NCBI RefSeq assembly: GCF_000512355.1
Contig: NZ_CP004006.1
Location: forward strand, 2,438,501-2,502,500
Reading direction: 5' to 3'
DNA: 64,000 nt
DNA from: Legionella oakridgensis ATCC 33761 = DSM 21215
Lineage (GTDB): Bacteria; Pseudomonadota; Gammaproteobacteria; Legionellales; Legionellaceae
Shown piece by piece: positions 3,874 through 58,726 of the stretch. Position 1 is the first letter of the stretch; every line of letters begins with the position of its first letter. The position numbers and the translations under genes were made by a program. The notes under the pieces are model-generated. The model was not told the DNA's origin. It did no database searches and saw nothing but the letters and a program-made list of their open reading frames with translations.

Positions 3874-4544
3874 ATGAGTCGCATATTTAATATGTTCGGG
3901 CCATCACCAATCAGGCCTATTGAGCAGCATATGCGTAAAGCATACCATTGTGCAAAGCAGCTCTATCCATTTTTTGAAGCTGTTCTTGAGCAAGATTGGG
4001 AAACGGCTGATGACCTTAGACAAAAAATAATTGCGATTGAAAAAGAAGCTGATCTGATTAAAAGAGATTTACGACTTCATTTACCAACTGGATTATTTCT
4101 TCCTGTTTCTCGTACCGATTTACTGGAACTACTAAGCGCCCAAGATCGCATTGCTAATAAAGCAGAAGACATCGCTGGCTTGATTATGAGCCGACGCATG
4201 ATTATTCCCAAAGTGCTTTCTGGAGTGTTCATGCCTTTCTTGCATCGCTGCCTAGATGCAGCTAAACAAGCCTGTAAAGCCATAAACGAATTAGATGAAT
4301 TGCTGGAAACCGGCTTTCGCGGCAGTGAAGTAAACATTGTGGAAGAAATGATTCTTACGCTGGATGAAATCGAACATGATAGTGATGACAAATTAGCCGA
4401 TATCAGGCATCGCATTTTTGAGCTGGAAAAGGATTTACCCGCCATCGAAGTGATTTTTCTCTATAAACTGGTTCAATGGATTGGTGACTTGGCTGATCAT
4501 GCCCAAATCGTGGGGGTCGGCTGCAAATTCTCATTGCCCGGTAA
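3874..4544 (+). CDS. DUF47 (PhoU-like) PiT accessory protein, frameshifted at its 3' end
   Basis: An all-helical PhoU-like protein of the TIGR00153/DUF47 type, encoded directly before a PiT transporter and thought to modulate phosphate uptake. As sequenced, the frame runs past its natural end to 4629, overlapping the transporter by 77 bases with an unrelated Cys-rich tail. If the G5 run at 4512-4516 had one more G, the frame would read GGRLQILIAR then TAA at 4542-4544. That is the usual ending of this family, 8 bases before the transporter ATG, with a length of about 223 residues. I therefore give the restored end. The N-terminal part (PIRPIEQHMRKAYHCAKQL) is intact. Confidence 0.8.
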
Positions 4545-4552
4545 TCTGACTT

Positions 4553-5806
4553 ATGGATTTATCAATTGTATTTGTAATTCTTGCTGCTATTCTTTGCTTT
4601 TTTATGACTTGGGGGGTTGGTGCCAATGATCTTGCCAACGTCATGAGTACCACGATGGGTTCCAAAGCCGTGACGGTCAAGCAAGCGATGCTGATTGCTA
4701 TTCTTTTCGAATTTGCTGGAGCATTTCTGGGTGGCACAGGGGTAACCGAAACCATGCGCGACGGTATTATCAATACCAGTGAATTATCGCAACAGCCATT
4801 ATTACTGGTGGAAGGCATGCTTAGCGTGCTGATAGCCTGTACTATTTGGATGAATCTTGCCAGTTTTTTTGGCTTGCCAGTATCCATAACCAATGCCTTG
4901 GTAGGCTCCATGGTTGGATTTGGGAGTCTCGTATTAGGAAAAAATGCCATTCATTGGCATCAGGTTTCTCATATTGCAATTGGCTGGGTTACTTCTCCCT
5001 TAATTGCCGGCACCACTGCCTTTGCGTTATTTACCAGCATCCAACAGGCCATTTTTGTTAAAAGTGACCCCTTGATAAAAGCCAAATTGTATATCCCAAT
5101 TTACTTGTTTTTAGTTGGCTCTATTTTGTCTTTTATTACTGTATTCAAAGGACTAAATCATTTTGATATTCATTTAAATATCAAACAAGATATTGCCGTT
5201 ACTTTAGCCACCAGCATCATTATTACCATCGTTGGCATGATTTTTATCAAAAATATTCCCGAAAAACCGATGCTAAGACGCCGAGAGCGGTTTTTGCAGG
5301 TCGAGAAATTCTTTGCCGTATTGATGGCAATGACTGCATGTGCCATGGTATTCGCCCATGGTGCCAATGACGTGTCCTTAGCAGTCGGCCCTCTGACGAT
5401 CATTCATAGCCTTATCACCGATGCTCAACAACCCTTTGAAGTGACCGATTACCCGGCCTGGATTATTTTGCTAGGATGTGTTGGCGTGGTCACCGGCTTA
5501 TTGATGTATGGCAGAAAAGTTATTGAAACGGTGGGCAGTTCAATCACAGCATTAACTCCCAGCCGGGCTTTTGCAGCAACTCTTTCTGCCGCAACCACCG
5601 TCGTCGTTGCAACCAGTCTTGGGATTCCTGTGTCTGCCACACAAACGCTCGTGGGTGCCGTTCTTGGTGTCGGCTTGGCCCGAGGCATTGGTGCATTAAA
5701 TCTAATTGTTATCCGTAATATCTTTACATCATGGGTTCTTACTTTGCCTGCAGCATCTCTATTAACCATCCTGTTTTATAAAATATTGCATGCTTTCCTA
5801 AGTTAA
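4553..5806 (+). CDS. pit: PiT-family inorganic phosphate transporter
   Basis: A 417-residue inner membrane phosphate permease. Both family signature repeats are present: GANDLANVMSTTMGSKAVT near the N-terminus (about residues 22-42) and HGANDVSLAVGPL in the second half (about 275). Roughly ten membrane helices flank a central cytoplasmic loop with the basic stretch LRRRERF. Late segments GIPVSATQTLVGAVLGVG and RNIFTSWVLTLP are typical. It is paired with the DUF47 gene upstream, the standard arrangement for this transporter class, which uses a cation gradient. Confidence 0.93.
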   Translation: MDLSIVFVILAAILCFFMTWGVGANDLANVMSTTMGSKAVTVKQAMLIAILFEFAGAFLGGTGVTETMRDGIINTSELSQQPLLLVEGMLSVLIACTIWMNLASFFGLPVSITNALVGSMVGFGSLVLGKNAIHWHQVSHIAIGWVTSPLIAGTTAFALFTSIQQAIFVKSDPLIKAKLYIPIYLFLVGSILSFITVFKGLNHFDIHLNIKQDIAVTLATSIIITIVGMIFIKNIPEKPMLRRRERFLQVEKFFAVLMAMTACAMVFAHGANDVSLAVGPLTIIHSLITDAQQPFEVTDYPAWIILLGCVGVVTGLLMYGRKVIETVGSSITALTPSRAFAATLSAATTVVVATSLGIPVSATQTLVGAVLGVGLARGIGALNLIVIRNIFTSWVLTLPAASLLTILFYKILHAFLS

Positions 5807-5888
5807 TGCCAATTTTTTTCACCTTTCTCCTGATTGTCTGCCGTGAAGCCAAGTACTACTTCCTGTAATGCTTAGCCACAGCAACTCA

Positions 5889-6074
5889 CTAAAAGTCCTT
5901 CCAAATCTCTTCCTGTCTTTCTTCCGGATTGGCGTGATCACGAAGTCTAAAGATTCGCTGATGTTTTTTAATTTCCTTTAATTGCGACGCTGATTTTTCA
6001 TGGGTAGCATCAAATTGATATAAAAATCGGTCGTAAGGGCTTACGTAAGCCTTATCAATATCTTGGCTGCTCAT
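5889..6074 (-). CDS. Small conserved protein of the CBU_0585 type
   Basis: A 61-residue protein beginning MSSQDIDKAYVSPYDRFL and ending EERQEEIWKDF. I recognise the segment DATHEKSASQLKEIKKHQRI as the core of a small family known from Coxiella and Legionella (CBU_0585 family); its function is unknown. The open frame extends to 6239, but the start at 6074 has a GGGA ribosome site 7-8 bases upstream and the longer N-terminus looks non-homologous. It is soluble, highly charged and without a signal. It is convergent with the phosphate transporter gene and divergent from add. Confidence 0.75.
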   Translation of the reverse strand: MSSQDIDKAYVSPYDRFLYQFDATHEKSASQLKEIKKHQRIFRLRDHANPEERQEEIWKDF

Positions 6075-6163
6075 CTTTTTTCCCACTATCAATGATATAA
6101 CTGGTAATTTTATCGGGTTTTTATTAAAGTTGCCATGCATTAATACAGGAAAGAGCAAATACC

Positions 6164-56882: not shown

Positions 56883-57103
56883 ATACCTCTCGTCATTCTT
56901 TAATAGCAAACCTTGGGAACTGCTATACTGGTGCGGGCTCAATATAATAAAGGAGCGATTTCCTTTTCCCCATTTACGTGAAGGTAAGGCTCATTAACCT
57001 CTTGCAAGCGCCTCATATATTGCTATTGCTGCGCTGCTAACGTTTCTGCAGTTGGCATTACAATATACCGACCAACAATCACGCACCGCAGAATTTAGAT
57101 AAT

Positions 57104-57125
57104 AAAAAACCCCATAAATGGGGTT
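57104..57125 (-). terminator. Terminator of tRNA-fMet
   Basis: On the minus strand AACCCCA and TGGGGTT form a 7-bp stem (57119-57125 with 57108-57114), followed by a run of Ts (57104-57109). It lies 8 bases after the tRNA CCA end. Confidence 0.88.
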
Positions 57126-57132
57126 CAAAAAG

Positions 57133-57209
57133 TGGTAGCGGGGGCAGGATTTGAACCTACGACCTTCGGGTTATGAGCCCGACGAGCTACCAGGCTGCTC
57201 CACCCCGCA
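57133..57209 (-). tRNA. Initiator tRNA-fMet (CAT)
   Basis: A 77-base tRNA read on the minus strand. Anticodon CAT in a stem with three G-C pairs (CGGG...CCCG), the hallmark of initiator tRNA. The acceptor is TGCGGGG with CCCCGCT, so 1:72 is an unpaired T:T instead of the usual C:A mismatch. T loop GGTTCAAATCC; CCA is encoded. It lies between nuoN and rimP, a common site in gammaproteobacteria. Confidence 0.95.
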
Positions 57210-57284
57210 TCAACTGAAAGCAATTATACGCACCAGACGCGGACATATCAAGTCATTTGCGTTAATAATTAGGGAATTTATCCA

Positions 57285-58726
57285 TCAACTTGCAAATGCA
57301 TTCACACATGCCGCGATTAATGCTCCAGGAAAAATTCCAAAATACAAAAGCGACAGGCAATTTGCTGAAAACACAACTTTAGCAAACCCTGATATTTGAA
57401 CAGGAATGGAATCAACAGCTTCGTCAAAATACATGACTTTTACAACACGTAGGTAATAAAACGCGCCAATAACAGCAAATACAAGCCCCAAAACAGCCAC
57501 CCATGTTAATTGCACATCCACCAGGGCTTTCAGAACCAGCAATTTTGCAAAAAATCCGACTGCAGGTGGAACCCCAGCCATAGAAAACAGAATAATCATC
57601 ATCATGAATGCTATCCAGGGATTACGCTTATTTAAACCTTTTAAATCATCTACCTGCTCAATTTCAACACCTTCTCGTGACAAAAGAACAATCAAGCCAA
57701 ACGCAGCGGCTGACATAAGGGCATACACCAGTACATAGTATAAAGAAGCAGCATAACCATCGGCATTTGCCGCCAAAATACCAAATAAAGAGTATCCCAT
57801 ATGCGATATTGCAGAATATGCAAATAATCGTTTTATATTATTTTGTGCTATGGCAAGAAGATTTCCTGCTCCGGTGGAAAGCAGCGCCATAATTAGAATT
57901 AAATGCTGCCATTGGGGAGCAATATCTGCCAATCCAAAAACCAATATACGCAATGCCATACCAACAGCAGCAATTTTAGGAGCACTGCTAATAAATAAAG
58001 TCACTGAACTTGGTGCTCCCTGGTAAACATCAGGCGCCCACATATGAAAAGGCATGGCTGCCAATTTAAAACCAATACCGACCACAAGGAAAACAAGAGC
58101 AAAAGATAACAGGCCACTTTGTTGTTGCCAGTTTGCTGCGATGGCATTAGCAACCTCATGAAGATCTATTTTTCCAGTGGCACCATACACCAAGGAAATA
58201 CCATACAGTAACATGCCAGAAGCAATGGCGCCCATGACAAAATATTTCATGGCTGCTTCAGATGCATCACTGTTTGTACGACGAATTGCCGTCATTGCAT
58301 AAAGAGGTAAGGAAAGAAGTTCCAAACCAAGATAAACCGTTAATAAAGAATGGGCAGATACCAGCACCATCATCCCTACCGTGGAGAAAAGTCCTAAGAC
58401 ATAATAATCTCCCGACGGCATTTGTCGTTCATCAAGATAATGTCTTGAATAGAAAAACTTAAAAAAACAGTAACATAAATAAAAATTTTCATGAGTTGAG
58501 CAATATCATCACTGATAAATAAACCATGAAGAGTAATGATTTTAAAACTACCTAGAAGGAAAAAACTGACTAACGCTGCTAAAATCAGGCCGGCCATTGC
58601 ACAAAAAAACGCAATAGCAGGAACGTATCGACGGAAAAATAAATCACCAATCAAGGCAATACTTGCTGTTATCAACAAAATCATTTCAGGTAGTGCTACA
58701 TGGATATTTTCAAGTAATTCAGTCAT
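57285..58726 (-). CDS. nuoN: NADH-quinone oxidoreductase subunit N, frameshifted
   Basis: An antiporter-like membrane subunit of complex I. The N-terminal piece (58726-58394) has three helices (MILLITASIALIGDLFF; FFCAMAGLILAALVSFFLL) but ends in unrelated sequence after FLSFSIQD. The rest (from 58421) continues GDYYVLGLFSTVGMMVLVSA and runs normally to the C-terminus, with PFHMWAPDVYQGAP and KRLFAYSAISHMGY. One missing T in the T5 run (A5 at 58453-58457 on the plus strand) explains the break: with T6 the frame reads SFFYSRHYLDERQMPSGDYY. Restored length is 480 residues. Confidence 0.92.

What the first reader, a model, noticed from the sequence alone, without database searches (positions are those of the whole stretch)
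4512..58457. A series of single-base frame breaks, nearly all in homopolymers, in core genes
I see breaks in DUF47 (G5, 4512), ftsY (T6, 10145), M16 peptidase (A5, 12023), dotD (T6, 14316), petC (GG, 31495), petB (A6, 32480; A5, 32271) and nuoN (A5, 58453). Seven of the eight need one base added; the petB A6 break needs one removed or two added. In every case the next frame continues the expected family sequence. Essential genes such as ftsY make biological loss unlikely. The pattern is that of homopolymer sequencing error. The gene calls in the features list assume this.
Basis: partly seen in the sequence, partly recalled or inferred. Interest (0 to 1): 0.7.

Follow-up and report, generated by a model that had tools for sequence, protein, structure and literature searches.

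The report
Frame breaks from homopolymer sequencing errors
Several genes in this Legionella-like genome, some of them essential, look broken in short runs of A or T, and the pattern is best explained by uncorrected sequencing errors rather than by anything the bacterium does.

Summary
All eight reported breaks are present: six strongly, two (DUF47 C-terminus, dotD N-terminus) only on short terminal pieces. The pattern is not local. In the window plus six 20-kb stretches of the same chromosome I accept 18 breaks in 15 genes over 115.8 kb scored; four genus relatives give 2 in 343 kb with the same scan (p = 2e-9). Broken genes outside the window include rpoB, ffh and ligA; no second copy was found. 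Seventeen of 18 sites have a run of at least five equal bases within 15 nt (background 18%), and 16 of 18 share one frame class. Sequence on both sides stays conserved, and nonsense codons are no commoner than in relatives. Runs are mostly 5-6 bases, too short for known transcriptional slippage. Best reading: homopolymer-length errors in an assembly not corrected with accurate reads (0.94). Raw reads were not available, so this is inference.

The parts
3874..4550 (+). DUF47 (PhoU_div) gene; frame changes near 4505-4520, last few residues in another frame (weaker case)
9848..10902 (-). ftsY in two pieces; frame changes near 10144-10153
10948..12302 (+). M16 peptidase gene in two pieces; frame changes near 12023
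14294..14781 (+). dotD: whole DotD domain in one frame, short N-terminal piece in another, change before 14320 (weaker case; described by pieces only)
31284..32044 (-). petC (cytochrome c1) in two pieces; frame changes near 31498; no run of 4 or more within 15 nt
57285..58726 (-). nuoN in two pieces; frame changes near 58460 (the N-terminal piece has no Pfam match; its case rests on relatives)

Best explanation
The frame breaks are errors in the deposited sequence: the lengths of short A/T runs were miscounted, mostly in one direction, in an assembly not corrected with accurate reads. The genes in the living cell are most likely whole. Shown here: breaks in six of the seven chromosome stretches sampled, mostly in short A/T runs and in one frame class, some in essential genes with no second copy found, near-absent from relatives, with conserved sequence on both sides. 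Inferred: that the reads would contradict the record, and that a long-read (or pyrosequencing) platform is the cause. At the sampled rate the chromosome would hold roughly 370 breaks (assuming 88% coding).
For: 18 accepted breaks in 115.8 kb against 2 in 343 kb of four relatives, p = 2e-9; 8e-8 without the three breaks of the ffh stretch. rpoB and ligA in two pieces here, whole in 6 of 6 genus relatives; ftsY open frame 263 aa here, 353-369 aa in 6 of 6; nuoN 406 aa here, 482-486 aa in 6 of 6. 17 of 18 sites with a run of 5 or more within 15 nt, background 18.0%, p = 3e-12. 16 of 18 in one frame class, p = 0.001. One nonsense codon with two or more references in 29,971 supported codons here, one in 99,724 in the four relatives. 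Listed contamination 3.43 against 1-2 in six genus relatives, as doubly counted marker pieces could give. The literature describes this pattern for long-read assemblies (PMC8812927, PMC12007338; passages).
Against: No reads seen. Long runs are only weakly rarer than in relatives: A/T of 8 or more, 30 against 44.2 expected, p = 0.05; G/C of 6 or more, 13 against 22.7, p = 0.06; A/T of 7 or more, p = 0.15. Break frequency does not clearly rise with run length. Breaks cluster mildly, 8 of 18 with a neighbour within 1 kb against 3.2 expected, p = 0.035. 17 of 17 plasmid genes compared are unbroken, 0 breaks where 2.4 were expected, P = 0.09. Broken genes have slightly lower median identity, not significant.
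Confidence: 0.94

Rival explanations
1. Real gene decay: the lineage has recently lost many genes through small indels at short runs, for instance on becoming host-restricted.
For: Real indels also favour runs; breaks cluster mildly, with three in petB and one in petC next to it; median identity of broken genes is 4-6 points lower, p = 0.08-0.68; one nonsense codon near the end of rpoC.
Against: rpoB, ffh, ftsY and ligA are broken with no second copy found, and cells are known not to live without them (general knowledge). Nonsense codons are not in excess. 16 of 18 share one frame class.
Confidence: 0.03
2. The short runs are real and the cell makes full-length protein by transcriptional slippage or ribosomal frameshifting at them.
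For: 17 of 18 sites lie near A/T runs; slippage in A/T tracts is proposed to rescue broken genes, essential ones included, in Blochmannia (PMC3017870, abstract and passages).
Against: Known slippage tracts are A runs longer than 7 or T runs longer than 8 (PMC3711429, passages); only 1 of 18 sites has a run of 8 or more, while 29 of the 30 A/T runs of 8 or 9 in the sample lie at no accepted break. rpoB, ligA, ftsY and nuoN are unbroken in 6 of 6 genus relatives. petC has no run.
Confidence: 0.02
3. Phase variation: reversible run-length switching of gene expression.
For: Run-length change in tracts is a known switch (recalled; no call).
Against: The genes hit are mainly housekeeping genes, the runs are short, and switching off rpoB or ftsY would be lethal (general knowledge).
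Confidence: 0.01

Closest known systems
Gene-fragmenting homopolymer errors of long-read bacterial assemblies (PMC8812927, abstract and passages; PMC12007338, passages)
   Same: Many small frame-shifting indels over a contiguous genome, mostly one direction, at short A/T runs, in genes that relatives keep whole.
   Different: Here neither the platform nor the reads are known, and long runs are only weakly under-represented.
Frameshifted genes in poly-A/T tracts of Blochmannia, proposed to be rescued by transcriptional slippage (PMC3017870, abstract and passages)
   Same: Frameshifts in A/T tracts of genes that include essential ones.
   Different: There a very AT-rich genome with many tracts of 9 or more, and some frameshifts shared between species; here 41.5% G+C, runs mostly of 5-6, and none of the checked breaks shared with a relative.
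Singleton frameshifted genes confirmed by homologues in the GeneTack survey (PMC3711429, passages)
   Same: Frame transitions confirmed by homologues and seen in one genome only; the authors expect such cases to be sequencing errors.
   Different: Their survey covers 1106 genomes; here many such cases lie in one genome.

Membership tests
Homopolymer sequencing/assembly error | breaks concentrated at runs of equal bases | tested here: met
   17 of 18 with a run of 5 or more within 15 nt, background 18.0%
Homopolymer sequencing/assembly error | mostly one direction | tested here: met
   16 of 18 in one frame class
Homopolymer sequencing/assembly error | spread over the genome regardless of gene importance and confined to this assembly | tested here: met
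   six of seven stretches sampled; 18 against 2 in four relatives
Homopolymer sequencing/assembly error | long runs collapsed | tested here: inconclusive
   weak deficit, p = 0.05 and 0.06
Homopolymer sequencing/assembly error | accurate reads contradict the record | not testable with these tools
   no reads and no second assembly of the species on hand
Pseudogene decay | nonsense codons in excess beside the frameshifts | tested here: not met
   1 in 29,971 codons here, 1 in 99,724 in relatives, two or more references
Pseudogene decay | relaxed constraint in broken genes | tested here: inconclusive
   lower median identity, p = 0.08-0.68
Pseudogene decay | dispensable or duplicated genes | tested here: not met
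   rpoB, ffh, ftsY, ligA; no second copy found
Programmed frameshifting or transcriptional slippage | break conserved in relatives | tested here: not met
   unbroken in 6 of 6 genus relatives for rpoB, ligA, ftsY, nuoN
Programmed frameshifting or transcriptional slippage | tract of 8 or more A, or 9 or more T, for slippage (threshold) | tested here: not met
   1 of 18
Programmed frameshifting or transcriptional slippage | slippery heptamer with stimulators at the site | not tested
   no motif search was made at the sites
Programmed frameshifting or transcriptional slippage | full-length product from a broken gene | not testable with these tools
   no transcript or protein data

The most novel reading that the evidence does not exclude
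The short runs are real, and a Legionella-like genome of ordinary size carries hundreds of real frame breaks at A/T runs of mostly 5-6 bases, rpoB, ffh, ftsY and ligA among them, with working protein made by pervasive slippage or frameshifting at runs far shorter than any known to allow it.
Probability: 0.02. Interest if true: 0.9.

Novelty: not a real feature. Interest (0 to 1): 0.1.

Why it matters
Mainly a warning for annotation: in this genome split or truncated genes should not be read as gene loss, and counts of pseudogenes, missing respiratory genes or secretion-system integrity drawn from it would mislead. If the runs were real after all, it would overturn what is known about how short a run can support slippage.

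Tried and rejected
A first pass by chaining tblastn pieces missed two of the three petB breaks because alignments ran through them; I replaced it by the frame-support scan. Its counts with two or more references, the own genome also serving as a reference for the relatives, were: own 17 of 32 clusters, G001 0 of 10, G005 1 of 10, G006 0 of 14, G004 1 of 12. Its in-frame stop counts were swamped by antisense ORFs and dropped; redid them on 332 reference genes. The script failed half-way on masked bases; its second half was rerun.

Rows dropped before the count of 18: one search gave 40 clusters in the own genome, 20 with two or more references, one of which holds two petB breaks, so 21 places. 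I dropped three: two N-terminal ones (L184 7789, L187 6727; first runs of only 5-10 windows) and one antisense echo of an ffh break (L189 9607). The 20 single-reference clusters were not counted, though some (L187 14113 and 14966, L185 17681) may be real. Of the relatives' 25 clusters 2 had two or more references, and neither was dropped. DUF47 and dotD are not among the 18. The own genome had four references and each relative three. The ffh stretch (L189) was chosen after ffh had been seen broken, and ligA was searched after one search had named it; rpoB, dnaE, gyrB, infB, secA and ileS were written down beforehand.

Naming the species: the kin is Legionella by named records, and the plasmid search gave no near-identical record. 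A guess at L. oakridgensis came from recall; one search listing and passages of one review did not settle it, and I do not rely on it. A search for papers holding Legionella, frameshifted, homopolymer and pseudogenes together gave none.

Full report
What the window is. It is bases 2,438,501-2,502,500 of the first of two contigs of a 2.77 Mb genome; that contig has 2,722,964 bases and the second 50,245. The phosphate transporter next to DUF47 is 86-87% identical to those of L. yabuuchiae, L. impletisoli and a Legionella MAG, so this is Legionella kin. I therefore described and compared only, and mended nothing.

The observation. Four of four relatives agree on ftsY, M16, petC, petB and nuoN. 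petB changes frame three times, near 32476, 32275 and 32195; the last was not in the finding. DUF47 has only its last few residues in another frame. dotD keeps its whole domain in one frame, and only a nine-codon N-terminal piece lies in another. These two are weaker.

Is it local? I wrote down six anchor genes beforehand: rpoB, dnaE, gyrB, secA, ileS and infB. One of six, rpoB, is in two pieces in this genome; it is whole in 6 of 6 genus relatives. The other five are in one piece here. ffh, met in passing, is also in pieces. I then took 20 kb around rpoB, dnaE, gyrB, secA, ileS and ffh from this genome and stretches around the same genes from four relatives, as far as their contigs allowed.

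A scan that asks, window by window, which of three frames resembles the relatives' proteins gave 18 accepted breaks in 15 genes over 115.8 kb, against 1 in 79.2, 1 in 102.1, 0 in 64.2 and 0 in 97.8 kb for the relatives. That is 15.5 against 0.58 per 100 kb, p = 2e-9; without the three breaks of the ffh stretch, p = 8e-8. Six of the seven stretches hold at least one accepted break; the secA stretch holds none. The own genome had four references and the relatives three. The rows I dropped are listed under Tried and rejected.

Outside the window the broken genes are rpoB, ffh (twice), ligA, aroK, aroB, and genes for an SBP_bac_5 binding protein, an AhpC/TSA protein, an AAA/SPOR protein, a PnuC-like transporter and an ABC-2 permease (gene names inferred from the Pfam families). 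ligA is in two pieces here and whole in 6 of 6 genus relatives. ffh is one open frame of 458-469 residues in the four relatives used.

The sites. Within 15 nt, 17 of 18 have a run of 5 or more, against 18.0% of random positions (p = 3e-12). The longest run at each of those 17 is of A or T: eight of 5, seven of 6, one of 7, one of 9. The exception is petC. 16 of 18 share one frame class, the one that an under-counted run gives.

Decay or error? Of 29,971 supported codons, one nonsense codon had two or more references, near the end of rpoC; the four relatives had one in 99,724. Broken genes are 4-6 points less identical in the median than whole ones, not significantly (p = 0.08-0.68; the identity is of the best piece, which can run into a wrong frame). 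rpoB, ffh, ftsY and ligA are indispensable (general knowledge), and no second copy was found.

Recoding? Known slippage tracts are A runs longer than 7 or T runs longer than 8 (PMC3711429, passages), and the Blochmannia cases lie in a very AT-rich genome rich in long tracts (PMC3017870, abstract and passages). Here 1 of 18 sites has a run of 8 or more, and rpoB, ligA, ftsY and nuoN are unbroken in 6 of 6 genus relatives. I made no search for slippery heptamers.

Against my reading. Long runs are only weakly under-represented (p = 0.05, 0.06 and 0.15). Break frequency does not clearly rise with run length: 1.1% at 5, 2.2% at 6, 0.9% at 7, 0 of 26 at 8, 1 of 4 at 9. The breaks cluster mildly (p = 0.035). 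In the first 20 kb of the plasmid, 17 of 17 genes compared with L. anisa plasmid genes are in one piece over 15.5 kb, where 2.4 breaks were expected (P = 0.09). Deeper plasmid coverage would explain the last, but I could not test it.

Literature. Long-read-only assemblies carry hundreds of residual errors, mostly homopolymer indels that shift frames (PMC8812927, abstract and passages). In one study deletions were commonest after four to five equal bases and most often in A or T (PMC12007338, passages). Frameshifts confirmed by homologues but seen in one genome only are expected to be sequencing errors (PMC3711429, passages). Other papers were seen only as search listings or as passages not relied on (PMC5655016; PMC5574713).

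Verdict. Ordinary assembly error, 0.94; not a real biological feature.

Noticed in passing
L184:16107 (own genome, rpoC): A stop codon near the end of rpoC where four relatives have H or Q; 18-20 of the next 24 residues still match them, and no run longer than 2 lies within 15 nt. Truncation or a base error.
   Followed up: partly
   Followed up: yes
L207:2198-2214 (relative G005): A frame change in a gene of about 303 aa, supported by the own genome and G004 and by G004 alone in the stricter scan; perhaps a real pseudogene in that relative.
   Followed up: no
L210 (second contig, first 20 kb): Mosaic plasmid: the replication and partition end is 93% identical to one L. anisa plasmid, the F-type transfer region 85% identical to another and about 81% to pLD-TEX-KL.
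   Followed up: partly
whole genome G000: Listed contamination 3.43 against 1-2 in six genus relatives; marker genes in two pieces, counted twice, could raise it (inference).
   Followed up: no
window 34474-34573: ARAGORN reports a tRNA-Stop (tta) inside an ORF that Rfam does not confirm; probably spurious.
   Followed up: partly
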